Virus record (IMG/VR): IMGVR_UViG_3300045825_000462 | Span: 1-20,713 of that record | Source of the DNA: a virus | Reading direction: 5' to 3' (one strand) | Length of the DNA stretch: 20,713 nucleotides | Shown here: positions 92 through 18,589 of the stretch, piece after piece | How positions within the stretch are numbered: the stretch's first letter is position 1 | Layout: each line of letters opens with the position of its first letter | Translations under genes and position numbers: made by a program | Notes under the pieces: generated by a model | What the model saw: only the letters and a program-made list of their open reading frames with translations | Told to the model about the DNA's origin: nothing | Database searches by the model: none

Positions 92-865
92 TCAATCACC
101 CGATTGATTTACTTTCCTTTTTTTTTTTACTTCTTTATGGTCAAATGATACATAATGTTCTACATTTCGCTTAAAGAACATAATTAAACATTCAAGAGAT
201 TTGCTGTAACCTGTTAATTTCGTAAACTCTACAAATCCTACCGCTCGGTAAATACAATAATACTCTTCAGCTAAAATTTTTCTATCCGAGGATAGTTTTT
301 GTTTTTTAACTATATTTGCCTTGTTCAGTCTTAGTTTTTCTTTGACTTTCAACGCCTTTTCCTCAATAACACGAGCTTCTTTTTCCGCTTTAACTCTAAT
401 CGAAAGTAGTTTGTTTGTAAAATTGACTACCCGTCCTCGTTCCCAACCTTGTTGTTCCCAAAAAAGTAGGTCATCTTTAGGAATCTTCTTACTTACTTGT
501 TCCTCTAAGTTGTGAATCCACATAGTTCCGAACTGCGAATTACCTTCACCTGTTTGGTTTCTACTTTGTTCACTAACAAAACGCTCACGTAACCAACTAT
601 ACATACGGTTGTTGGCTCTTTTACGTTCCTCTTGACCTATACACATCATGTTTACCGCTATAATCAGTCCATACTCTTTTTGGTATATTTTAACTAAAAG
701 TTGGTGAGCAACAAAGTGTTCTCTAGCTGTTAGTCTGACCATGTTGGTTTTATCATTTGAACCACCCATACACTCAGGTATGATATGGTGATTTTCTGTG
801 TATCCGTTGTTAACTCTGTTTTGTGCTCGTAAAACCAATAGGTCGTAAGTTCGTTTATAATCCAT
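92..865 (-). CDS. HNH homing endonuclease
   Basis: Free-standing HNH endonuclease of 257 residues of the kind common in T4-like phages. The HNH core lies at about residues 24-60 (ENHHIIPECMGG ... NMVRLTAREHF ... H): paired histidines, an Asn-bearing middle and a final His. At about 110-147 is a second module found in many phage homing endonucleases, a GNSQFGTMWIHN stretch followed by KKIPKDD and GWERGRV. The tail is Lys-rich and probably binds DNA. Such enzymes cut a homing site in genomes that lack the gene. The start is at 865, with GGAG about 11 bases upstream and a perfect TATAAATA late-type box at 898-905. It is paralogous to the HNH gene at 1693-2496, with exact residue spacing over the first 27 positions. 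The two flank the first tRNA block. Target site unknown. Confidence 0.85.
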   Translation of the reverse strand: MDYKRTYDLLVLRAQNRVNNGYTENHHIIPECMGGSNDKTNMVRLTAREHFVAHQLLVKIYQKEYGLIIAVNMMCIGQEERKRANNRMYSWLRERFVSEQSRNQTGEGNSQFGTMWIHNLEEQVSKKIPKDDLLFWEQQGWERGRVVNFTNKLLSIRVKAEKEARVIEEKALKVKEKLRLNKANIVKKQKLSSDRKILAEEYYCIYRAVGFVEFTKLTGYSKSLECLIMFFKRNVEHYVSFDHKEVKKKRKVNQSGD

Positions 866-897
866 AGTATTCTATCTCCGAAAAGTATATATACTAT

Positions 898-905
898 TAT
901 TTATA
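898..905 (-). promoter_or_regulatory. T4-type late promoter for the HNH gene
   Basis: TATAAATA reads leftward about 33 bases upstream of the HNH start at 865. In T4 this octamer is the whole late promoter recognised by gp55/gp33/gp45-modified RNA polymerase. Assigned by sequence match and correct orientation. Confidence 0.6.
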
Positions 906-1019
906 AGCGAACTACTATTATCTATCCTTTACTTAGTTAGCAAAATTATAACTTACTAGTTTCAGTCTATTGACCTAATTACACCCTACGCCACGAGAAG
1001 GCTAGTTATATGTAGGATA

Positions 1020-1090
1020 GTCCCATATCCGAATCGAACGGATGGTCATGAATTTGCAATCCACCGCTTTGCTACTTAAGCTAATCAACA
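1020..1090 (-). tRNA. tRNA-Cys-like (GCA), poor acceptor stem
   Basis: The anticodon arm (loop TTGCAAA, anticodon GCA) and T-arm (loop TTCGATT, perfect 5-bp stem) are clear. A 4-bp D stem GCTT/AAGC is also present. The expected acceptor strands (TGTTGAT and ATGGGAC) barely pair, and there is no encoded CCA, unlike most neighbours. The bases after the T-arm form a second small GGATA/TATCC palindrome, suggesting a rearranged 3' end. It may be a decaying tRNA-Cys. Confidence 0.5.
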
Positions 1091-1097
1091 TATATTT

Positions 1098-1173
1098 TGG
1101 CTCCGGTGACAGGTTCCGCCCCTGCATTGTGATAGTTAACAGCTACCCGTCCTTACTATTTGACTACACCGGA
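1098..1173 (-). tRNA. tRNA-Asn (GUU), class I, unusual T-loop
   Basis: Acceptor TCCGGTG/CACCGGA pairs perfectly, with encoded GCCA. Anticodon loop CTGTTAA gives GUU. The 5' TCC and 3' GGAGCCA ends match bacterial tRNA-Asn. The T stem is good, but the T-loop reads GGCGGAA instead of the usual TTCRANN. Confidence 0.85.
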
Positions 1174-1182
1174 ATAAATTTT

Positions 1183-1266
1183 TGGTGCATAAAGAGAGAC
1201 TTGAACTCTCAATCCTTTCGGCGTTGGCTTCTTAGACCAATGTGTATACCGTTCCACCATTTATGC
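1183..1266 (-). tRNA. tRNA-Leu (AAG), class II
   Basis: Perfect acceptor GCATAAA/TTTATGC with encoded ACCA. Stem TTGGT/GCCAA closes the loop CTAAGAA, giving anticodon AAG. A long variable arm is present, as expected for Leu. The T-loop TTCAAGT is canonical. An A34 anticodon for Leu is rare in bacteria. Confidence 0.85.
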
Positions 1267-1272
1267 ATATTT

Positions 1273-1358
1273 TGGTACTCGAGGTGGGTCCTGACCCCAC
1301 AATCTTCTAAGAGCGCTGGCTTCTAAGACCAGTATGTATTCCGTTCCATCACTCGAGC
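1273..1358 (-). tRNA. tRNA-Leu (UAG), class II, unusual T-loop
   Basis: Acceptor GCTCGAG/CTCGAGT with encoded ACCA. Loop CTTAGAA gives anticodon UAG (reads CUA). The variable arm is 15 bases. T stem GTGGG/CCCAC is perfect, but the T-loop is GTCAGGA. Confidence 0.85.
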
Positions 1359-1366
1359 ATAATTAT

Positions 1367-1442
1367 TGGTGTTCCTGGATGGATTCGAACCATCACTATA
1401 TCGGGTTTGAGCCGATTCCCTCTGCCGTTGGAGTACAGGAAC
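1367..1442 (-). tRNA. Class I tRNA with anticodon CAA (nominal Leu)
   Basis: Acceptor GTTCCTG/CAGGAAC perfect, ACCA encoded, T-loop TTCGAAT canonical. Stem ATCGG/CCGAT closes the 7-base loop CTCAAAC, giving anticodon CAA (UUG, Leu). The variable region is only 5 bases, although bacterial tRNA-Leu is class II. Identity is therefore uncertain. Confidence 0.75.
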
Positions 1443-1448
1443 ATTTTT

Positions 1449-1523
1449 TGGTACCAGATGTAGGTAACGCTCCTACTACTTTCTCCTTGTAAGGGAAACA
1501 CTCTACTTTTGAGTTAATCTGGC
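1449..1523 (-). tRNA. tRNA-Val (UAC), unusual T-loop
   Basis: Acceptor GCCAGAT/ATCTGGT, ACCA encoded. Stem TTTCC/GGAGA closes loop CTTACAA, anticodon UAC. T stem GTAGG/CCTAC is perfect, with T-loop AGCGTTA. Confidence 0.85.
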
Positions 1524-1525
1524 AT

Positions 1526-1599
1526 TGGTGCGTCCTGTCGGTAACGATCCGACGACTCCTACTTGGAAGGAAGGTGTGATACCATTTCACTAAGGAAGC
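1526..1599 (-). tRNA. tRNA-Gly (UCC), unusual T-loop
   Basis: Acceptor GCTTCCT/AGGACGC has one mismatch, ACCA encoded. Loop CTTCCAA gives anticodon UCC. There is one mismatch in the anticodon stem. T stem GTCGG/CCGAC is perfect, with T-loop ATCGTTA. Confidence 0.8.
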
Positions 1600-1610
1600 A
1601 TTTATAATTT

Positions 1611-1687
1611 TGGTGCTCGCCGTGGGATTCGAACCCACACCTGGACAGATTTTAAGTCTGATGCGTCTACCGTTGCACTAGACGAGC
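1611..1687 (-). tRNA. Class I tRNA with anticodon UAA (nominal Leu)
   Basis: Acceptor GCTCGTC/GGCGAGC, ACCA encoded, canonical T-loop TTCGAAT. CAGA/TCTG closes loop CTTAAAA, anticodon UAA (reads UUA, Leu). The variable region is short (about 5-6 bases), which does not fit class II Leu. Apart from the anticodon, the arm resembles a Lys (CTTTTAA) arm. Confidence 0.75.
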
Positions 1688-1692
1688 ATATT

Positions 1693-2496
1693 TTATCCAA
1701 ATTTCGGTCTATTCAATAAACCAGAACATTTTCTACTACAACATTTAAAATTATCTGTAGACTTCCCTTTTTTCGTGAAGGTACATTTACATTCTTGACA
1801 AATATAAAATCTATCAATTTTCACTTCATATTGTTTTTTAAATTCTCCAAAAAGAGTTTTCAATTTTGAATATAAAACACCTTCAGATTTATCATAATCA
1901 AAATTTTCAATAACATATTTGTATCCATAAGCTTTATAAGCTTCAAATATATCTAGGAAAGAATTTCTCTTTTCTTGAAGTTTTTCTTCAAGTTTATTTT
2001 TGTTTCTCTCTTTGATTTGATCTTTAATTTCTTTCTTTATATTTTCAAGATCGAATTTAATTTTACGACCTTTATTCCATCCTAAAGGTATTTCATCAGA
2101 TTTAGGTATCTTCTTAGACTCTTTTAAATCTAAATTATGAATCCACATAGTACCGAATTGACTATTACCATCACCCGATTGAGATAAAGATTGAGCTTCT
2201 GAAAATTTTTCCTTTAACCATCCATACATTCTATTACAAGAACGATTTTCGTTCATATTAGTAGATTGAACACACATTATAGAAATAGCTTTAACTAAAC
2301 CATAATGATTAGGATGTATCTTCCACAATAACAAATGAGCTATAAAATGTTCTCTTGTTGTTAAGTCAACTAAATTATCTTTATCATTTGTACCACCTAA
2401 ACAACGTGGTATTATATGATGAGATTCGGTGTAACTTTCAAGAGTTCTTTCTTTAGCTCTATTGATTAAGTTATCATAATGTAAAGTGTAGTTCCT
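1693..2496 (-). pseudogene. HNH homing endonuclease with lost start codon
   Basis: Paralogue of the HNH gene at 92-865. The open frame reaches 2496, and residues 1-27 align without gaps to the intact paralogue, sharing Y3, Y7, D8, R13, A14, R17, Y22-T23-E24 and H26-H27. The codon at 2494-2496, where the paralogue has ATG, is AGG. The next in-frame ATG (2334) lies after the HNH core, and an in-frame TAA lies a few codons upstream, so no normal start remains. The body keeps HHIIPRCLGG, REHF, the GNSQFGTMWIHN module and KKIPKSDE...GWNKGRK. The C-terminus has a four-Cys motif (CQECKC ... CCSRKC) absent from the paralogue. A weaker late-type box (GATAAATA) lies upstream. It is either a recent loss of function or uses a non-standard start. 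Confidence 0.75.
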
Positions 2497-2552
2497 AGAT
2501 AAATATATACTTTATTTATCATTTTCAAAGTAATACGTCCTATATTCTAAAT

Positions 2553-2648
2553 AGATAACTTCGCTCAAGAGGCAGGGTTCGAACCTACAATCTACGGCTT
2601 CAAAGACCGTTGGCATACCAGTTTGCCTACTCTTGAGCGAAGTTATCT
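2553..2648. repeat. 18-bp perfect inverted repeat enclosing tRNA-Gln
   Basis: Bases 2553-2570 and 2631-2648 are exact reverse complements, and one more pair can be added on each side. The inner 7 pairs are the tRNA acceptor stem; the rest is leader pairing with trailer. The two arms can form one continuous helix. Confidence 0.9.
2564..2636 (-). tRNA. tRNA-Gln (UUG), CCA not encoded
   Basis: Acceptor TCAAGAG/CTCTTGA perfect. D-arm GGCA/TGCC. Stem ACGGT/GCCGT closes loop CTTTGAA, anticodon UUG. T-loop TTCGAAC is canonical. The 3' end reads GCGA rather than NCCA, so CCA must be added after processing. The acceptor stem continues into a leader/trailer helix. Confidence 0.85.
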
Positions 2649-2660
2649 AATAGATTTCTT

Positions 2661-2769
2661 GAATTCTCAGCTCTCCACCTTGGAATCGAACCAAGCATCG
2701 GATTTAACTCTCGCCAAACGATTAACAGTCGCCTCGCACACCTTGCGCGCTGTAGAGAACTGAGAATTC
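2661..2769. repeat. 10-bp inverted repeat enclosing the second tRNA
   Basis: GAATTCTCAG (2661-2670) and CTGAGAATTC (2760-2769) pair perfectly, separated from the tRNA acceptor stem by a single G-U-type position. TTTCTT (2655-2660) and AAGAAA (2771-2776) extend it past one bulged base. Confidence 0.85.
2671..2758 (-). tRNA. Class II tRNA with anticodon GUU (nominal Asn)
   Basis: Acceptor TCTCTAC/GTGGAGA. D-arm CGCG/TGCG with GG in the loop. Stem GGCGA/TCGTT closes loop CTGTTAA, anticodon GUU. T-arm CTTGG TTCGATT CCAAG is canonical. The variable region is about 21 bases, as in Ser, Tyr or Leu rather than Asn. CCA is not encoded. The loop differs by one base from that of tRNA-Tyr (CTGTAAA). Amino-acid identity uncertain. 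Confidence 0.7.
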
Positions 2770-2832
2770 TAAGAAAAAATTGAATTAACAATAGAGAATT
2801 TAGTGTTTTAAATGATTGGTTTTTGTTTATCA

Positions 2833-2860
2833 TTTAAAGGGGAACTAAATCCCCTTTAAA
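2833..2860. terminator. Strong hairpin after the 56-residue gene
   Basis: Perfect 10-bp stem TTTAAAGGGG / CCCCTTTAAA with an 8-base loop, seven bases past the stop of the minus-strand gene at 2867. There is no clear U run after it, so this is a putative terminator or transcript-end structure. Confidence 0.55.
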
Positions 2861-2866
2861 GAAAAC

Positions 2867-3037
2867 TTAGATTGAAGTATTCTGTAAAAGAGAATTAGAA
2901 GTATTTAACCAACTTTGAACTGCTTGATTTTGCCCTAAGCTTAACCCTGCCAAATTCAGTTGACTAGCACGGAGCACGCTATTGCGATTTAATACATTGA
3001 CATTAACATTTTGTACGTTGCTGCTTGTGTTACACAT
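2867..3037 (-). CDS. Small protein of unknown function (56 aa)
   Basis: A 56-codon frame starting MCNTSSNVQNVNVNVLNRNS and ending in TAA, rich in Asn, Ser and Leu, with no membrane segment or cysteine motif. The start is well supported: AAGGAG lies seven bases before the ATG. It has a late-type box (CATAAATA, 3063-3070) and an extended -10 promoter (3107-3112) upstream, and a strong hairpin just after the stop, so it looks like a self-contained transcription unit between two tRNA blocks. I do not recognise the product. Its layout (short Ser/Asn-rich protein, dual promoter, terminal hairpin) resembles that of the 45-residue gene at 4070-4207. Confidence 0.7.
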   Translation of the reverse strand: MCNTSSNVQNVNVNVLNRNSVLRASQLNLAGLSLGQNQAVQSWLNTSNSLLQNTSI

Positions 3038-3062
3038 TGTGTGCTCCTTGTTTTTATTGTTT

Positions 3063-3070
3063 TATTTATG
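3063..3070 (-). promoter_or_regulatory. Late-type promoter box (CATAAATA)
   Basis: One base off the T4 late octamer TATAAATA, oriented towards the 56-residue gene with a leader of about 20 bases. The same variant occurs before the 45-residue gene and before the capsid gene. Confidence 0.4.
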
Positions 3071-3106
3071 TTTTGAAAAACTATGTTTTTCTTTTTATGT
3101 ACAGAC

Positions 3107-3129
3107 ATTATAACATAGTATAGCTTAAA
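3107..3129 (-). promoter_or_regulatory. Extended -10 (early-type) promoter
   Basis: Reading leftward: TTTAAGC, about 10 bases, then ATGTTATAATG. TATAAT (3107-3112) is preceded by TG one base away, a sigma70 extended -10. The arrangement recurs at 4248 and, with a variant upstream element, at 4334 and 4810. Confidence 0.6.
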
Positions 3130-3208
3130 GTTAGATTAAATTCTATGAATTTATTAACTTTTGTGAAAGATTTTCATTTAAGAAATAGACCCTTCATAAA
3201 AATCAATC

Positions 3209-3284
3209 TGGTGCCGATTAGAGGCTTTGCTCCCCTCACCTGTAGTTTACAAAACTACTGCTCTGCTGAATGAGCTAAATCGGC
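3209..3284 (-). tRNA. tRNA-Thr (UGU), unusual T-loop
   Basis: Acceptor GCCGATT/AATCGGC perfect, ACCA encoded. GTAGT/ACTAC closes loop TTTGTAA, anticodon UGU. T stem AGGGG/CCTCT, with T-loop AGCAAAG. Confidence 0.85.
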
Positions 3285-3290
3285 ATATTT

Positions 3291-3371
3291 TGGTTGTCGC
3301 TCGACGGAATTGCACCGTATCTGGAGTGTCCACTGTTCTCTCCTGTAATAACTATTATACTACAAACAACA
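3291..3371 (-). tRNA. tRNA-like sequence, anticodon not assignable
   Basis: Acceptor TGTTGTT/AGCGACA can pair, encoded ACCA follows, and the spacing matches the array. The T-arm has only a 4-bp stem (ACGG/CCGT) with loop TGCAATT. The anticodon region is a GGAG/CTCC stem around 13 bases instead of 7, so no standard anticodon can be read. Either a degenerate tRNA or one with an insertion in the anticodon loop. Confidence 0.5.
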
Positions 3372-3376
3372 TATTT

Positions 3377-3469
3377 TGGCGGGCAATGTTGGGTACGATC
3401 CAACAAGAGTTTTTGACGCTCTGCTAGTTTTCAAGACTAGTGCAATTATTCCATTTCTGCCAATTGCCC
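3377..3469 (-). tRNA. tRNA-Ser (UGA), class II, unusual T-loop
   Basis: Acceptor GGGCAAT/ATTGCCC perfect, GCCA encoded. CTAGT/ACTAG closes loop CTTGAAA, anticodon UGA (reads UCA). Long variable arm with a GAG/CTC stem. T stem GTTGG/CCAAC is perfect, with T-loop ATCGTAC. Confidence 0.9.
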
Positions 3470-3474
3470 ATGTT

Positions 3475-3548
3475 TGGTAGTTCTAGAAGGTACTGACCCT
3501 TCGTCTATCCCTTATCAAGGGATTACTCTGCCATTGAGCTATAGAACT
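3475..3548 (-). tRNA. tRNA-Ile (GAU), unusual T-loop
   Basis: Acceptor AGTTCTA/TAGAACT perfect, ACCA encoded. ATCCC/GGGAT closes loop TTGATAA, anticodon GAU. T stem GAAGG/CCTTC is perfect, with T-loop GTCAGTA. Confidence 0.88.
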
Positions 3549-3555
3549 ATATTTT

Positions 3556-3630
3556 TGGCGATCCTGAGGAATTTTGAAATCCCGACCCTTCCGCTGACAA
3601 CGGAGCACTCTGCCTCTGAGCTACAAGACC
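3556..3630 (-). tRNA. tRNA-Asp (GUC)
   Basis: Acceptor GGTCTTG/CAGGATC, with wobbles; GCCA encoded. Loop TTGTCAG gives GUC. T-loop TTCAAAA is near canonical, with a slightly irregular T stem. Confidence 0.85.
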
Positions 3631-3643
3631 ATTTTTAAATTCT

Positions 3644-3718
3644 TGGTGGAGATAGAGGGATTCGAACCCTCGACTCAAGATTGCAAGTCTTATGTATTCC
3701 CAATTATACTATATCCCC
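3644..3718 (-). tRNA. tRNA-Ala (UGC)
   Basis: Acceptor GGGGATA/TATCTCC, ACCA encoded. Loop CTTGCAA gives UGC. Canonical T-loop TTCGAAT with a perfect GAGGG/CCCTC stem. Confidence 0.9.
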
Positions 3719-3722
3719 AATT

Positions 3723-3797
3723 TGGTATCACCAAGGGGATTTGAACCCCTGACTTCACAGTGAAAGTGTGACGAGATAACCCCTTCTCCATGGTGAC
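3723..3797 (-). tRNA. tRNA-Glu (UUC)
   Basis: Acceptor GTCACCA/TGGTGAT, ACCA encoded. Loop CTTTCAC gives UUC. Canonical T-loop TTCAAAT. Confidence 0.9.
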
Positions 3798-6017: not shown

Positions 6018-8060
6018 ATGATAACTTTAAAAAGAAATAAAGGTTCTGCATTATCACACGATGAACTTGATGACAATTTTGCAGGTTCTGTAAATATATT
6101 TGATGCACAAACTGTTGATGGTGTTAAGACATTCACATCATCACCCGTTGTACCAACACCTTTACCAGGTGATAATACAACAAAGGTTGCAACAACAGCT
6201 TTTGTTACATCTGCTGTTACTTCTGCTGTTACTACTGATACTGTTCAAAATGTAACTGGTCAGAAAACATTTACACAGTTAATCAAAACAGATGGAATTG
6301 TCTCTATATTAAACACAAATGGTGGATCATATATTGATTTAAATGATGGGCAAATCTCTATTGGTACTGGATTGAATAGTGCTAGTAATGTTCCTGAGAT
6401 AAGTATTGAAAATACTGGCTATGGGATGAGTGTTGTATTCCGACCATCAGATACTGTTGTTTTTCAAGCTCCTAGTGTTTTTGGATTCGGTATAAATGTT
6501 CAAGGACCGTCAGGTTTTGGGGATATTTCCTCTCATAATAATATTTGTGATTTTTTACGAATTTATGATTATGGAAATGGGTTAAATGCCTCTTATGAAA
6601 AAACGATACCAATTAATGATAATTCCTTTCAAATGGCAAATACAGCTTTTATTCAATCATTACTTGGTACATCATTGGCTACTAAACAGGCTACATTAGC
6701 TTCTGGTACTAATATTAAAACTGTTAATGGTACTAGTATTCTTGGTGCCGGCGATATTACTATTTCTGGTGGTAGCACAGATATACATTCATTAACTGAG
6801 AAAACAATACTGGCTAATACAGATGAATTTCTTATCTGGGATTCAATTACAAGTACTTATAAGAAAACAACATTCTTACAATTAAAGAATATTGTAGTAT
6901 CAAATACATATTCGGAAGTTGGGTCAATTGTTCTATATAATAATATTCCAACTGGTTACTTAGAATGTAATGGTCAAGCTATTTCAAGAACTATGTACTC
7001 GGCTTTATTTGCTGTTATTAGTACAACTTATGGTGCTGGTGATGGAAGTACAACATTTAACCTTCCTAATTTAGCTACAACTGCTAGTGTTACTTTTGTT
7101 GCTGGTCCAAACTTAACATATGAGTATGCTAATCACGCTATGCAATTCTTATCAACTGATGAATTTGCTCTTGATACTACTGGGATTCAAGGAGCAGTCG
7201 GGGAATTCTACAAGATATCTGGGAATGTATTTGCTAATAGCACAAGTAATGCTGGTATTAATGTTTCAATGACTAATGGAGGTCTTCCCTATAAAATTTC
7301 TCCTTTAAATCATCCTGATTACACCGGAGAGCAGGCTTTCCTAGTATCTGGTGAAGGTTCAGTTAATGGGACCGGATCTGATTTATCAGTTTTCAATGCC
7401 GGGTATTGGTCAGGACCCAATCCTGGTCAAAGTGGGATGTTACCAATGATCAACAATGGGGCAGTAGGGTATTCACAAATCACATTAGCTGATAATCGAG
7501 TATTATTTATGGGTGGTATCAAGAATTCAGTACCGCAAAACACTACAGCAATAGTTCAGTATAATGGGTTGGGTACTCCTATGACTATAACTACTAGTAC
7601 TCCTCTTCCAAGCTCATTATATTATCATAGAGTTTCTCAACTTCATGATGGTCGAATTCTTATTACTGGTGGATTTACTTCTACTGGCGCAGCAAACAAA
7701 ACTTATATTGGTACTATTACTGGAACGACGATCACGTATGTTGAAAGCAACATACTTCCGACGGATTTATTCGGGCATGAACAAACAGTACTATTAGATG
7801 GTAGAGTATTAATTACTGGTGGGTCATCTAATACGGATATGGCTGGATTATCAAATAAAGCCTATATTTTAACAATAGTTGGTAATACAATTTTATATAG
7901 TGATCCTATAATCATGCCAAGTAACCTTTTCGAGCATAGAGCTTTACTACTTTCATTTGGTAGAGTATTAATTACTGGTGGTATGGCGTCAGCAGGTACC
8001 CCAACTAATAAAACATATTTCCTTACCGTCGAGAGTGGTAAAAGAAGTATTAAGTATTAA
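6018..8060 (+). CDS. Tail fibre / receptor-binding protein with collar domain and kelch-like repeats
   Basis: A 680-residue fibre protein. Residues 1-30 (MITLKRNKG...LDDNF) are an N-terminal module shared with the fibre genes at 8086 and 18589. Around 40-60 is the PTPLPGDNTTKVATTAFV fibre motif. About 299-345 is a phage tail-collar domain (GSIVLYNNIPTGYLECNGQ ... YGAGDGSTTFNLP). The last 200 residues hold four kelch-like blades about 52 residues apart, each with DxRVLxxGG or DGRILITGG. The fourth stops abruptly: the strand KTYFLTVESG runs into KRSIKY and a stop supplied by a tandem 7-bp repeat. Most kelch propellers have six or seven blades, so the protein may be truncated. GGAG lies seven bases before the ATG. 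It probably binds the host surface at the tail tip. Confidence 0.85.
   Translation: MITLKRNKGSALSHDELDDNFAGSVNIFDAQTVDGVKTFTSSPVVPTPLPGDNTTKVATTAFVTSAVTSAVTTDTVQNVTGQKTFTQLIKTDGIVSILNTNGGSYIDLNDGQISIGTGLNSASNVPEISIENTGYGMSVVFRPSDTVVFQAPSVFGFGINVQGPSGFGDISSHNNICDFLRIYDYGNGLNASYEKTIPINDNSFQMANTAFIQSLLGTSLATKQATLASGTNIKTVNGTSILGAGDITISGGSTDIHSLTEKTILANTDEFLIWDSITSTYKKTTFLQLKNIVVSNTYSEVGSIVLYNNIPTGYLECNGQAISRTMYSALFAVISTTYGAGDGSTTFNLPNLATTASVTFVAGPNLTYEYANHAMQFLSTDEFALDTTGIQGAVGEFYKISGNVFANSTSNAGINVSMTNGGLPYKISPLNHPDYTGEQAFLVSGEGSVNGTGSDLSVFNAGYWSGPNPGQSGMLPMINNGAVGYSQITLADNRVLFMGGIKNSVPQNTTAIVQYNGLGTPMTITTSTPLPSSLYYHRVSQLHDGRILITGGFTSTGAANKTYIGTITGTTITYVESNILPTDLFGHEQTVLLDGRVLITGGSSNTDMAGLSNKAYILTIVGNTILYSDPIIMPSNLFEHRALLLSFGRVLITGGMASAGTPTNKTYFLTVESGKRSIKY
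6316..6407 (+). repeat. 92-bp exact direct repeat, copy 1
   Basis: Identical over 92 bases to 8243-8334 in the next fibre gene. It encodes the stretch from NGGSYIDLNDGQ to EISI in both genes in the same frame. Confidence 0.95.
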
Positions 8061-8072
8061 GTATTAAGTATT
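8045..8072 (+). repeat. Four tandem copies of AAGTATT
   Basis: Perfect 7-bp tandem repeat, four units, spanning the stop codon of the kelch fibre gene and the gap before the next ATG. The unit contains TAA in every frame within three copies, so any frame entering it stops. Confidence 0.95.
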
Positions 8073-8085
8073 AAAAGGATATAAT

Positions 8086-14149: not shown

Positions 14150-15127
14150 ATGACACGACACGATATAGACGATGTAGTAGCACGTTTGGCACTTCCACGT
14201 GACCACGAAGGATATTACGTCGATGCGTTTGGTAATAGAGTTTCATTCAATGGAATCAGAACAATCAAACCCGCATTTACCAAATTAAATCTAACAAATG
14301 AGCATGCAGAAGAAATTTTTAAATGTGCAATGAGTTTTCAATATTTCAGGGAAAACTATTGTATCATCTTGACAGATAAAGGTTATGCACGACCACAACC
14401 ACGTGATTATCAAGCAAGACTTGAAGGTGATTTACTTGATAATAAAAGAAACTTGGTATTATTTGGTAGACAATCAGGAAAGACTGTAACTGTTGCAACA
14501 TACATCTTATGGAAATCATTATTTTATCTAGGCGATGAAATGACCATTGGAATCGCAGCTAATAAACAAGGTATGGCGATTGAGGTACTTGATAAAATAA
14601 AAAATATATTTGTGAATTTACCTTTTTGGTTAATGACAGGTGTAAATTCATGGAACAAGAAAACTGTTGAGTTTGAAAATAAGGTACGTATATTAACAAG
14701 TGCTACTAATGGTGACTCATTTCGTGGTTTTACATTGGAATTGTTATATATCGATGAGTGTGCATTTATCCGTCCTACAATCTGGCAAGATTTTGAGGAT
14801 TCTGTCTTCCCAACGGTAACTGCTGTTGAAGGTTCTCAAATTATTATATCAAGCACACCAAAAGGTATGAATCATTTTTATAACATGGTTCAAGGTGCAA
14901 GATTAAACACCACTGGTTATGTTTTATCTGAGATGGAATGGGACGAGGTTCCTGGTCGTGATAAGAATTGGCGTGATAACATTATAGCTGATAAAGGTAT
15001 TGCATACTTTAATCAAAACTTTGGTTGTGTTGGTGAAAATTCTATTATAAATATATTTGATACATTAACTGGTGAATATATAGATATAACAATAAAGGAT
15101 TTCTATGAGAGATTATACAATAATTAA
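14150..15127 (+). CDS. 17: Large terminase, N-terminal part (ATPase) with N-intein fragment
   Basis: The first half of the DNA-packaging motor. Residues 1-292 are terminase: Walker A GRQSGKT (106-112), Walker B LLYIDE (198-203) and motif III SSTPKG (234-239), as in T4 gp17. At Cys293 (15026) the sequence switches to intein: CVGENSIINI...TGEYIDITIKDFYERLYNN, 33 residues, then TAA. The intein part has only the first splicing block; block B and the C-terminal blocks are in the next gene, which overlaps by 23 bases in another frame. This half would lack nuclease activity until joined to the other half. Start chosen at 14150, where AAAAGG lies upstream; a longer frame from TTG is less likely. Confidence 0.92.
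   Translation: MTRHDIDDVVARLALPRDHEGYYVDAFGNRVSFNGIRTIKPAFTKLNLTNEHAEEIFKCAMSFQYFRENYCIILTDKGYARPQPRDYQARLEGDLLDNKRNLVLFGRQSGKTVTVATYILWKSLFYLGDEMTIGIAANKQGMAIEVLDKIKNIFVNLPFWLMTGVNSWNKKTVEFENKVRILTSATNGDSFRGFTLELLYIDECAFIRPTIWQDFEDSVFPTVTAVEGSQIIISSTPKGMNHFYNMVQGARLNTTGYVLSEMEWDEVPGRDKNWRDNIIADKGIAYFNQNFGCVGENSIINIFDTLTGEYIDITIKDFYERLYNN
15026..15124 (+). other. N-terminal fragment of a split intein (IntN, 33 aa)
   Basis: Begins with the nucleophile Cys1, directly after the extein ...FNQNFG. Its short N-block pattern (Cys-Val, acidic/small residue, a TGEY turn, then IKDFYERL) resembles my memory of the 25-residue N-part of the AceL-TerL intein from Antarctic lake metagenomes. No block B His is present in this piece. 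Confidence 0.85.
15094..15099 (+). promoter_or_regulatory. Ribosome binding site inside the first terminase gene
   Basis: AAAGGA five bases before the ATG at 15105. It supports independent translation of the second terminase gene instead of frameshifting out of the first. Confidence 0.75.
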
Positions 15128-16022
15128 AGAAAAAACCAAAAACAAACATATTTTAGAAAAAAATAATGATGGTGATGTATATGATGAGAAAGAATTATTA
15201 AATATTATTGATTTTAAAGACCTTGACATGTATTTAAAATCTGGCGGGCACAGAACAATGATTAAAGATAATCCTAAATTATATAGATCTATTATTAGAC
15301 ATACATCGTTACTTAATAATGGAAAAAATATAACATTACGTGCAAGAATAATATTTTTAAAAGACCAGGAACAACAAATATATTGTAATTGTAATTCAAG
15401 AATAAAATGGGACTCTGTAGATTTTAGATTTATAAAATGGTGTCCATCATGTAAGCCAGCAACAAATTCAAAAGATTTTTTTATTCAAAAATATGGTTTA
15501 GATGAAGGTACCACAAGATATAACGAGAATTGTTTGAGTCAGTCTAATATATCTAAAGGAAGAAATACATTACAGTATTTTGAAGATAAATTTCCAGGAA
15601 ACGGAAATTTAAGATATGATGAATATTGGGATAAAAACTTTTCTAATAGGAATACTTCAAGAAATTATTCAAAAATATCTCAAGAGTTATTCTGGAAAAT
15701 TTATGATAAAATGGATGATAAATCTGAGATATTTTTTGAAGAGTTAAATTATGAGAAACATATAAATTTAAACAAATATGATAAATTAATATTAACTAAA
15801 AACAAAGTAAGAATAAATTTAGATTTTATGTATCTAAATAAGATAATAGAATTTAATGGGGGTTATTGGCATAACACCCCAGAAGTCTATAAAAATGATA
15901 TTTCAAGATATAATATATGTAAATCTAAAGGTTATGATATTTTATTCATAAATGAAAATGAATATAAGAATAATCCTAACGAGACATTATCAAAATGTAT
16001 AAGATTTTTAGATGCACCTACA
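15105..16022 (+). mobile_element. Vsr/EDxHD-like homing endonuclease region
   Basis: Inserted between the two intein pieces, in frame with the C-piece. The core has an Asp, Glu and His spaced as in very-short-patch-repair-type nucleases, plus a Cys4 ribbon. Similar endonucleases were described in fractured genes with split inteins. The target would be the unsplit or intein-free terminase gene. Confidence 0.7.
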
Positions 16023-17174
16023 GGTATTATTAATAGTAGATATTTAATAAAAACGTCTGATGGATTATCTCCTTTCGATGGTATTAAAAAAATACTAAAA
16101 AATACAATTATATTTGAGTTGGAAAAAAATTCAATAACAGTATCTATAGATCATATGTTTGTTATCAATGATAAAGACGTATATGCACGAGATTTAATTA
16201 TAGGTGATTATCTTGAGTCTATTACTGGATTAGAAAAAATTATAGATATAAGAATTGGGGATGCTGAGTATGTTTATGATATTTTACACACATATAACCA
16301 CAATTATGTTGCAAATAATATAATAAATCATAATTGTCAATTTGAAGGTTCTGATGATACGCTAATATCACATCTTGCATTACAGCGTATGGTTCCAGTG
16401 CCTCCATTGCATGTAAATAAATTCATTGATGGCTTACGTGTTTATGATATGCCTGAGGAAAAATCAAAATATATTTGTGCTGTTGATAGTGCTAAAGATG
16501 GTCTTGATAAAATTGCTATTCAGATGATAAATGTTACAAAATTCCCATTCATACAAGTGGCATCTGCAAATCTCGATATAAGTTATCTTAAACTTGCTGG
16601 TCCTCTAACTGAGTTATGTAAGGAATATAATAATGCATTTTTAGTTGTAGAAAATAATGAAGGTGCAGGTCAATCACTTGTAGATTCTGTTACGAACACA
16701 TACGAGTATGAAAATGTATATAAGGATGCGCCCGGCAAAGACGGAAAAATGCGTAGATATTTTGGGTTTAGAACAACGTCACGTTCACGTAAGGTAACAT
16801 TAAGTTTATTACGTACATTTCTTGAAAATGATAGATTAATACTAAAAGATCATGCAACTATTGATGAATTCTATCATTTTATCGATATTAAAGGAAAATA
16901 TCAAGCGGATGATGGTTATCATGATGACCTTGTAATGGCACTTGCTATTTCATTTGCACCTATTAAAGATATAAGAAATCTTGAAGATCAGAAAAAATTT
17001 ATTGACTCGTTATTTGAGGAAATGGATGAAGATGAGGAAGATACAACTTTTGAAGAAGTATTCGCATTTGGTTCATTTGATGAGATAGATGATAGTATTC
17101 ACAGAAATGAATTCGCAGATTGGAATTCATATCGTGAATCTGAAGATAGATATGTTGATAGCAATTTTGGTTAA
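15105..17174 (+). CDS. 17: Homing endonuclease - C-intein - large terminase nuclease domain
   Basis: A 689-residue three-part protein. Residues 1 to about 305 are an endonuclease: a zinc-ribbon-like four-Cys motif (C94, C96, C113, C116), then a Vsr/EDxHD-like core around 237-285 with D240, E249 and H256 (INLDFMYL...IIEFNGGYWH). Residues about 311-410 are the rest of the intein: block B SIDH (347-350), ending ...NNIINHN. Cys411 opens the C-extein CQFEGSDDTLIS, the terminase nuclease domain with D461 (CAVDSAKDG), E516 (VVENNEG) and D607/D608 (GYHDDLVMA). Splicing would give a 571-residue terminase (T4 gp17: 610). AAAGGA precedes the ATG. The frame is +1 to the first gene. The endonuclease portion is visibly richer in A+T than the extein parts, fitting insertion. 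Confidence 0.9.
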   Translation: MRDYTIIKEKTKNKHILEKNNDGDVYDEKELLNIIDFKDLDMYLKSGGHRTMIKDNPKLYRSIIRHTSLLNNGKNITLRARIIFLKDQEQQIYCNCNSRIKWDSVDFRFIKWCPSCKPATNSKDFFIQKYGLDEGTTRYNENCLSQSNISKGRNTLQYFEDKFPGNGNLRYDEYWDKNFSNRNTSRNYSKISQELFWKIYDKMDDKSEIFFEELNYEKHINLNKYDKLILTKNKVRINLDFMYLNKIIEFNGGYWHNTPEVYKNDISRYNICKSKGYDILFINENEYKNNPNETLSKCIRFLDAPTGIINSRYLIKTSDGLSPFDGIKKILKNTIIFELEKNSITVSIDHMFVINDKDVYARDLIIGDYLESITGLEKIIDIRIGDAEYVYDILHTYNHNYVANNIINHNCQFEGSDDTLISHLALQRMVPVPPLHVNKFIDGLRVYDMPEEKSKYICAVDSAKDGLDKIAIQMINVTKFPFIQVASANLDISYLKLAGPLTELCKEYNNAFLVVENNEGAGQSLVDSVTNTYEYENVYKDAPGKDGKMRRYFGFRTTSRSRKVTLSLLRTFLENDRLILKDHATIDEFYHFIDIKGKYQADDGYHDDLVMALAISFAPIKDIRNLEDQKKFIDSLFEEMDEDEEDTTFEEVFAFGSFDEIDDSIHRNEFADWNSYRESEDRYVDSNFG
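16035..16334 (+). other. C-terminal fragment of the split intein (IntC, about 100 aa)
   Basis: Starts near SRYLIKTSDGLSPFDGIKKI, includes block B (SIDH), an ARDLIIGDYL block, VYDILHTYNHNY and the terminal His-Asn followed by Cys+1 (16335-16337). The order and size (about 100 residues) match the unusual long C-piece of atypically split TerL inteins. Confidence 0.85.
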
Positions 17175-18589
17175 GGAATCTTTGGTATAAGTGTAAACAC
17201 ATTTCTATTAATCGTATCACCGAGTCCTAACTCACCATTACCATTCCATCCACATGCCCAGACGGTTCCATCAGATTTTTCAATGAAAGTGCTTTCATTG
17301 CCCGTAGTTATTTTGCTTGGTGATATTATATTTGGTATCTGGGTGAATACAGTTGTATTCATTTCATTCCCTAAACCAAACTGTCCAGAATCATTATATC
17401 CACAGGCCCATACGGTTCCATCAGATTTTTCAATGAAAGTACTTTTATTTTCAAATTTTATTTTATTTGGGTGATTAAATTCTACTGGTAATTGTGTAAA
17501 CACATTTCTATCAAGAGTATCACCTAAACCTAACTGACTAAAGTCATTATATCCACAGGCCCATACGGTTCCATCAGATTTTTCAATGAAAGTGTTACCA
17601 CCACCTAATGCTATTTTATTTGGATTATTAAATTCCGTAGATAATTGTGTAAACACACTCCTCGATGAAAAATCACCAGTTCCACATGCCCCGGTACCAT
17701 TCCATCCACAACCCCAAACAGTGCCATCATTTTTTTCTATAAATGTATGATTATACCCACATGCAATTTTACTTGGAAATGTAACATCTGGTAATTGTGT
17801 AAACACATTTCTATCAAGAGTATCACCTAAACCTAACTGACTAAAGTCATTATATCCACAGGCCCATACGGTTCCATCAGATTTTTCAATGAAAGTGTTA
17901 CCACCACCTAATGCTATTTTATTTGGATTATTAAATTCCGTAGATAATTGTGTAAACACCTCGGTGCTAAGATTATTACCTAACCCTAACCCACCGGTAC
18001 CATTCCATCCACAACCCCAAACAGTGCCATCATTTTTTTCTATAAATGTATGATTATACCCACATGCAATTTTACTTGGATTATCAAATTGTGTATCAAT
18101 TTTAGTAAATACATTTCTATTAATCGTATCACCTAAACCAAGTTGGCCTCTGTAATTATATCCACAGGCCCATACGGTTCCATCAGATTTTTCAATGAAT
18201 GTATACCAACCGAAAGATACGATTTTCCTTGGATTAGTAAATAAATCCCATTCAGTGCTCAGTTTAAAAAATATGGTTTGTACATCATTACTACTATTAA
18301 TCTGTATCCATGTTTTATTTTTAGTGGAATCTGGGTTAACTGGTATTTCAACACTAACTACAGTTGTAGTACTCGATACAGTTGATAAAAGGGATATTGG
18401 GAATGCCTGAAATTGATTGACATCATCAACTAATACATCTACACCACGAGGTGATTTTGTAAAAGTTTTAATTCCTGCGACTGCTGCATCCGTATCAAGT
18501 TTAACACGATTTATATCAAGTTGATGAAGATTATCATCCATCTCACCTGCAGAAAGAAACGTTCCTTTATTACGCATTAATGTAATCAT
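17171..18589 (-). CDS. Fibre protein with seven RCC1-type repeats
   Basis: A 472-residue protein. It opens with MITLMRNKGTFLSAGEMDDN, the N-terminal module shared by the fibre genes on the other side of the window. Residues about 60-120 form a linker or trimerisation part. From about 130 there are seven RCC1-like repeats of about 50 residues, each with FIEK(S/N)DGTVWxCGxN followed by LGLGD-type turns, enough for a closed seven-bladed beta-propeller. Blades 2-3 and 4-5 are near-identical at DNA level. Probably a receptor-binding or tail-tip protein. GAGG lies upstream of the ATG and overlaps the stop of the previous gene, so translation is coupled. Its stop shares TTAA with the terminase stop. 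Confidence 0.85.
   Translation of the reverse strand: MITLMRNKGTFLSAGEMDDNLHQLDINRVKLDTDAAVAGIKTFTKSPRGVDVLVDDVNQFQAFPISLLSTVSSTTTVVSVEIPVNPDSTKNKTWIQINSSNDVQTIFFKLSTEWDLFTNPRKIVSFGWYTFIEKSDGTVWACGYNYRGQLGLGDTINRNVFTKIDTQFDNPSKIACGYNHTFIEKNDGTVWGCGWNGTGGLGLGNNLSTEVFTQLSTEFNNPNKIALGGGNTFIEKSDGTVWACGYNDFSQLGLGDTLDRNVFTQLPDVTFPSKIACGYNHTFIEKNDGTVWGCGWNGTGACGTGDFSSRSVFTQLSTEFNNPNKIALGGGNTFIEKSDGTVWACGYNDFSQLGLGDTLDRNVFTQLPVEFNHPNKIKFENKSTFIEKSDGTVWACGYNDSGQFGLGNEMNTTVFTQIPNIISPSKITTGNESTFIEKSDGTVWACGWNGNGELGLGDTINRNVFTLIPKIP
17485..18080 (-). repeat. 303-bp tandem duplication within the RCC1 gene
   Basis: 17485-17656 equals 17788-17959 (172 bases exact), and 17691-17777 equals 17994-18080 (87 bases exact), both at an offset of 303. 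Between them lies a 34-base window (17657-17690 against 17960-17993) that is clearly different. One unit is 101 codons, two propeller blades. Confidence 0.92.

What the first reader, a model, noticed from the sequence alone, without database searches (positions are those of the whole stretch)
14150..17174. Terminase split by an atypical split intein with the break after only 33 intein residues
The sequence shows terminase ATPase, Cys1 intein start, 33 residues and a stop, then an overlapping gene in another frame with its own AAAGGA site that ends the intein (HN, then Cys) and supplies the nuclease domain. Block B lies in the second gene. This is the rare N-short split described for AceL-TerL-type inteins (from memory). 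The functional motor would need trans-splicing of two separately made proteins.
Basis: partly seen in the sequence, partly recalled or inferred. Interest (0 to 1): 0.88.

Follow-up and report, generated by a model that had tools for sequence, protein, structure and literature searches.

The report
Split-intein terminase with fused endonuclease
A phage's DNA-packaging motor gene is cut in two by a self-splicing protein element (an intein) that breaks after only 33 of its own residues and carries a DNA-cutting homing enzyme joined to its second half; it is a clear new example of a known kind of element, with unusually good "before and after" relatives.

Summary
Gene A (14150-15127) encodes the T4-type terminase ATPase plus 33 intein residues. 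Gene B (15105-17174, +1 frame, own AAAGGA site) ends the intein (HN|C) and encodes the terminase nuclease domain. Three assemblies agree at the break.

A natural uninterrupted 144-aa intein at the same terminase position (L097) aligns straight across the break. C1, block-B His, block-F Asp and HN|C are all conserved. The best solved relative is CatC, the AceL-TerL-type consensus intein. In Vibrio phage Va1, which has the same layout, the element is a precise 1519-bp insertion relative to uninterrupted terL genes of close relatives; removing it gives the same 632-aa enzyme.

The short-N split is common in terminase inteins, not rare. Endonuclease-IntC fusion has precedents: Aeromonas PX29 (annotated in GenBank), Va1, and IMG/VR loci L021 and L099.

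Verdict: a new member of the known atypical split-intein, "fractured gene" class, almost certainly trans-splicing to a 571-residue TerL. Splicing and homing are inferred, not shown.

The parts
14150..15127 (+). Gene A: T4-type terminase large subunit, ATPase half (N-extein, 292 aa) plus IntN (33 aa)
   Evidence: Pfam Terminase_6N E 9.5e-15; PHROG terminase large subunit E 1.5e-59; Walker A at 14468, Walker B at 14744
15026..15124 (+). IntN, 33 residues, catalytic Cys1 at 15026
   Evidence: Aligns with IntN of other TerL inteins (Cys invariant) and with residues 1-33 of the uninterrupted intein of L097
15094..15099 (+). Ribosome-binding-site-like AAAGGA for gene B, inside the IntN coding sequence
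   Evidence: Read directly; precedes the only in-frame start of gene B with a strong site
15105..17174 (+). Gene B: homing endonuclease - IntC - terminase nuclease half (689 aa)
   Evidence: ORF; homologue over 91% of its length in Vibrio phage Va1, 39% identity, E 1e-113
15105..16037 (+). Vsr/EDxHD-type homing endonuclease, residues 1-311; catalytic domain about residues 207-302 (15723-16010); likely active-site residues E208, D240, E249, H256, D265
   Evidence: MTES_1575 and DUF559 nuclease-fold matches below Pfam cut-off; fold match to I-Bth0305I catalytic domain 3R3P, prob 1.00, TMt 0.69; D240, E249, H256 and D265 invariant in window, Va1, L021; all five residues invariant in window, Va1 and the Aes508 VSR protein
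16038..16334 (+). IntC, residues 312-410 of gene B (99 aa): block B SIDH at 16143, block F VYD at 16272, terminal NHN
   Evidence: Pfam Intein_splicing E 6.5e-8, just below cut-off; PDB CatC 6DSL, gp41-1, VidaL; His, Asp and HN|C conserved in 20-22 aligned TerL inteins
16335..17171 (+). C-extein: terminase nuclease domain, 279 aa, starts with nucleophile Cys+1
   Evidence: phmmer to T4 gp17 structures 3EZK/3CPE E about 1e-19; PHROG terminase E 2.8e-30

Best explanation
A mobile split intein sits in the phage's T4-type terminase gene, just before the nuclease domain. Gene A makes the ATPase half with a 33-residue IntN tail. Gene B, started inside the IntN coding sequence, makes a homing endonuclease, then IntC, then the nuclease half. 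IntN docks into IntC to complete one HINT fold; Cys1, the block-B His, Asn410 and Cys+1 carry out ordinary class-1 protein splicing in trans, giving a 571-aa terminase. The released large fragment is endonuclease-IntC. The endonuclease cuts uninterrupted terL genes of co-infecting relatives, so that repair copies the whole cassette. Shown: anatomy, conserved residues, precise presence or absence in close relatives of Va1, uninterrupted versions of the same intein. Inferred: that splicing and homing actually occur.
For: Both halves align collinearly with an uninterrupted 144-aa intein at the same codon of a related TerL. The AlphaFold model of that intein is a full HINT (pLDDT 90.7; VidaL, RecA and gp41-1 inteins as best PDB matches), and the window's break falls at its residues 33-43, after the first helix has begun. 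All class-1 catalytic residues are kept. CatC is the closest solved sequence. Empty site: the Va1 terL flanks are 98.7% and 97.5% identical to the uninterrupted SRILMA gene, and precise removal gives 632 aa, equal to SRILMA and phiKT1024. The window's spliced 571-aa product aligns with uninterrupted TerL along its length apart from a shorter N-terminus. HEN, IntC and exteins are about equally conserved (33-38%, 38-47%, 39-53%) with no broken frame. The insert has 23% GC against 35% and 33% in the exteins.
Against: No expression, proteomic or splicing data. IntN could not be modelled with IntC in the window itself (pLDDT about 26-43 there). AceL-TerL and others can be slow or condition-dependent (PMC11766414). 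The endonuclease's DNA target is unknown, and its Pfam matches are below curated cut-offs.
Confidence: 0.86

Rival explanations
1. The two genes are joined by a programmed +1 ribosomal frameshift, so the intein works in cis as one large endonuclease-containing intein.
For: Gene B is in the +1 frame in window, Va1 and L021. A read-through of the break in one frame is possible on paper. Uninterrupted inteins exist at the same site (L097, L035, L054).
Against: Gene B has its own ribosome site and ATG. No shared slippery sequence at the break in the three loci. The offset is not always +1: the 31-nt overlap in PX29 puts 17B in the other frame. Relatives with a separate endonuclease gene between the halves (L010, L012, L023 and others) cannot be joined by one frameshift.
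Confidence: 0.04
2. The intein no longer splices and the terminase works as two non-covalently joined subunits (genes in pieces, as in the split phage ribonucleotide reductase).
For: Genes-in-pieces enzymes made by endonuclease insertion are known in phages (cited in PMC10448857). Splicing cannot be tested from sequence.
Against: Every splicing residue is intact here and in Va1 and L021 despite only about 35-45% overall identity. A dead intein would leave more than 400 foreign residues at the ATPase-nuclease joint with no reason for HN|C to be kept. Isolated phage Va1 must make a working terminase from the same layout.
Confidence: 0.07
3. Assembly or sequencing error, or a freshly broken pseudogene of a one-frame intein.
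For: The window is a 20.7-kb metagenomic virus contig, and its two confirming contigs (L001, L002) are the same phage.
Against: Three assemblies agree at the break. Distant relatives keep the same break, overlap and +1 frame. A plausible ribosome site lies exactly where gene B needs it. Gene B is open for 689 codons.
Confidence: 0.02

Closest known systems
AceL-TerL, GOS-TerL and consensus Cat atypical split inteins
   Same: Same host protein (TerL), short IntN of 25-37 aa, long IntC, HN|C end; CatC is the best solved match
   Different: Here a homing endonuclease of about 311 aa is fused in frame to the start of IntC; the characterised Cat IntC of 104 aa stands alone (PMC11766414)
'Fractured genes' of Dassa et al. 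2009 (split intein with a Vsr-type endonuclease gene between the halves; paper not held, from own knowledge)
   Same: Split intein, Vsr-like (EDxHD) endonuclease encoded between the two halves, phage gene
   Different: There the endonuclease is a free-standing gene; here it has no separate gene and IntC has no start codon of its own
Vibrio phage Va1 genes Va1_137/Va1_136
   Same: Same two-gene layout, same site, homologous endonuclease-IntC fusion, IntN of 32 aa
   Different: About 39% protein identity; GenBank annotates two terminase genes and mentions no intein or endonuclease
Aeromonas phage PX29 17A/17B
   Same: GenBank notes 'putative N-intein' and 'putative GIY-YIG endonuclease and C-intein': the same fusion order in TerL
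   Different: GIY-YIG instead of Vsr-type endonuclease, insertion one residue earlier, other frame offset

Membership tests
Class-1 inteins (HINT, protein splicing) | Nucleophile at position 1, block-B His, block-F Asp, terminal HN, nucleophile at +1 | tested here: met
   C293 of gene A; H350, D392, H409, N410, C411 of gene B; conserved in TerL inteins
Class-1 inteins (HINT, protein splicing) | HINT fold | tested here: met
   IntC part of the model matches gp41-1, Cat and VidaL (prob 1.00); an uninterrupted homologue folds as a full HINT. IntN of the window itself was not modelled.
Naturally atypical (N-short) split inteins, AceL-TerL type | Two separate genes with IntN of about 15-37 aa and block B in the second gene | tested here: met
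   33 aa; SIDH in gene B; literature range from PMC11766414 and PMC10189870
Naturally atypical (N-short) split inteins, AceL-TerL type | Sequence kinship to the TerL/Cat group | tested here: met
   Best PDB sequence match CatC: E 1.5e-4 with the window's joined halves alone, 5.7e-21 with the seven-row profile
Naturally atypical (N-short) split inteins, AceL-TerL type | Splices in trans | not testable with these tools
   Needs co-expression
EDxHD/Vsr homing endonucleases (I-Bth0305I) | Vsr-like catalytic fold with conserved acidic and His residues | tested here: met
   Foldseek to 3R3P prob 1.00, TMt 0.69, E 0.03; E208, D240, H256, D265 invariant in window, Va1, Aes508; the sequence match to 3R3P alone is weak (E 0.08)
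EDxHD/Vsr homing endonucleases (I-Bth0305I) | Site-specific cleavage and homing | tested here: inconclusive
   Precise presence or absence between Va1 and close relatives fits homing, but mismatches close to the junction show no long conversion tract, and direction is unknown; cleavage untested
Fractured-gene loci (Dassa et al. 2009) | Endonuclease encoded between the split-intein halves as its own gene | tested here: not met
   It lies between the halves but is fused to IntC; the nearest in-frame start upstream of IntC is inside the nuclease domain

The most novel reading that the evidence does not exclude
The endonuclease-IntC fusion is a stable, repeatedly formed intermediate between a free-standing endonuclease and a split intein. 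Endonucleases of different families enter uninterrupted TerL mini-inteins at the same stretch after the first helix, splitting them there, and then fuse to IntC (window, Va1, L021, L099, PX29) or to IntN (VP-1, L037, L051), so that release of the endonuclease fragment depends on trans-splicing.
Probability: 0.45. Interest if true: 0.6.

Novelty: new member of a known kind. Interest (0 to 1): 0.42.

Why it matters
It adds a well-framed case to the TerL atypical split inteins used for protein labelling. In one terminase clade it brings together the empty site, the uninterrupted mini-intein and the endonuclease-split form at one codon. That makes the question of how endonucleases create split inteins testable, and supplies new short-IntN pairs with matched unsplit controls.

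Tried and rejected
A mixed alignment of IntN-only, IntC-only and full rows was misaligned by MAFFT and was not used for folding. IntN stayed unmodelled in the window, so I folded the uninterrupted homologue instead. The genome-contig scan found no relative. The promoter scan around the break is no better than shuffles. Considered and rejected: separate translation of IntC (no start codon); assembly error. Dassa 2009, the GOS-TerL paper, the Cat mechanism paper and the I-Bth0305I paper are not in the library.

Full report
Observation. The two reading frames are as described. Gene A, 14150-15127, holds a T4-type terminase ATPase (Pfam Terminase_6N E 9.5e-15; PHROG terminase E 1.5e-59). It runs through NQNFG into CVGENSIINIFDTLTGEYIDITIKDFYERLYNN and stops: 33 residues after the junction. 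Gene B, 15105-17174, is in the +1 frame, overlaps gene A by 23 nt and is preceded by AAAGGA. It reaches NHN|CQFEG and continues as the gp17 nuclease domain (3EZK/3CPE, E about 1e-19). Exteins add up to 571 residues.

The break is real. Two other IMG/VR contigs of the same phage carry the same genes with the same break (L001, L002). Vibrio phage Va1, an isolated phage with a complete genome, and the 154-kb contig behind L021 have the same two genes, the same +1 frame and IntN of 32 and 31 residues. Identity to the window is only 33-53% by domain, so the layout is old rather than a recent slip.

What was missed. Residues 1 to about 311 of gene B are a homing endonuclease. Pfam matches fall below curated cut-offs (MTES_1575, DUF559), but the model's nuclease part matches the catalytic domain of I-Bth0305I (3R3P, probability 1.00). 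Residues E208, D240, E249, H256 and D265 are invariant in the window, Va1 and the "VSR" protein of Aeromonas phage Aes508. This is the EDxHD family (PMC3943268, PMC6083498), also called EDxHD/Vsr in PMC12350094. IntC is only residues 312-410. There is no usable start codon between the nuclease domain and block B, so IntC is made only as an endonuclease-IntC-nuclease fusion.

It is one intein in two pieces. In L097, a terminase of the same clade, the same codon carries an uninterrupted 144-residue intein with no endonuclease. The window's two halves, joined, align with it from end to end without a large gap (57/145 identical, E 9e-26). The AlphaFold model of L097's intein is a confident HINT (pLDDT 90.7, pTM 0.83; VidaL, RecA and gp41-1 inteins as best matches). 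The window's break corresponds to its residues 33-43, at the end of the first helix and just after it. In the window's own model IntC matches gp41-1, Cat and VidaL, but IntN was not placed because its alignment rows were missing. Against solved sequences, CatC, the engineered consensus of the AceL/GOS-TerL inteins, is first (E 5.7e-21 with a seven-row profile; 1.5e-4 with the window alone).

Mobility. Va1's terL and the uninterrupted terL of Vibrio phage SRILMA are 98.7% and 97.5% identical on either side. The insert is exactly IntN to IntC, 1519 nt, one base more than a multiple of three, which is why the frame changes (the window's insert, 1309 nt, has the same remainder). Removing it gives 632 residues, the length of the SRILMA and phiKT1024 enzymes. 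Mismatches between Va1 and SRILMA start within about 15 bases on both sides of the junction, so there is no long co-conversion tract, and gain versus precise loss is not decided. The window's insert has 23% GC against 35% and 33% in its exteins.

Survey. A scan of IMG/VR with the IntC profile gave 64 loci, most of them in TerL. A free-standing ORF between IntN and IntC is commonest; where it could be typed it is usually GIY-YIG, DUF7487-bearing or Vsr-like. Others have no endonuclease (L013, L033, L047, L061), an uninterrupted intein (L035, L054, L097), or an endonuclease fused to IntN (VP-1, L037, L051). Fusion to IntC occurs in the window, Va1, L021 and L099 (Vsr-like) and in Aeromonas PX29 (GIY-YIG), whose GenBank entry already says so. 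On a C-extein tree the window, Va1 and L021 fall in one starred clade (100/97) with uninterrupted terminases and L097; PX29 and L099 lie elsewhere. Fusion therefore arose more than once or moved between lineages. The tree cannot tell gain from loss, L099 has a long branch, and the layout labels were assigned by me from ORF maps.

Known or new. Short IntN fragments are established: 25 (AceL-TerL), 30 (Cat), 37 (GOS-TerL), 15 (PolB16) (PMC11766414, PMC10189870). Split inteins with a separate endonuclease gene between the halves are the "fractured genes" of Dassa et al. 2009 (own knowledge; paper not held), and other phage cases have been reported (PMC6892783). I found no paper describing a Vsr-type endonuclease fused to IntC, but PX29 is a public precedent for the fusion. 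I file this as a new member of a known kind.

Mechanism and certainty. Shown by sequence: gene layout, intact splicing residues, collinearity with an unsplit intein, precise presence or absence in relatives of Va1. Inferred: translation of gene B by coupling to gene A, docking of IntN into IntC, trans-splicing to a 571-residue motor, and homing by the released endonuclease-IntC fragment. A non-covalent two-part terminase and a +1 frameshift remain possible but are much less likely for the reasons given under rivals.

Noticed in passing
L097:2118-5854: A terminase of the same clade appears cut by three inteins: split at Walker A, split at Walker B with an endonuclease-like ORF between, and an uninterrupted mini-intein at the window's site.
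   Followed up: partly
L037:1614-4004 and L039:1642-4010: In closely related terminases the endonuclease is either a separate gene (L039) or continues from IntN in one frame (L037), so the fused and free states differ by little.
   Followed up: partly
window 17171-18589 (-): RCC1-like repeat protein beside terL; contig L001 of the same phage lacks one 303-bp double repeat, so copy number varies or the assembly collapsed.
   Followed up: no
window 92-3797 (-): Twelve tRNA genes (1183-3797) with two homing endonuclease ORFs of one family (phrog_655) next to and among them, at 92-865 and 1693-2334.
   Followed up: no
window 8045-8074: About four copies of the 7-bp unit AAGTATT at the very end of a tail-collar ORF (6018-8060), a possible frame-changing repeat.
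   Followed up: no
L015:1505-6778 and L062: Campylobacter phages such as IBB_35 have a terminase region broken by several ORFs including a MobE-like endonuclease and an intein C-part; the exact layout was not resolved.
   Followed up: no
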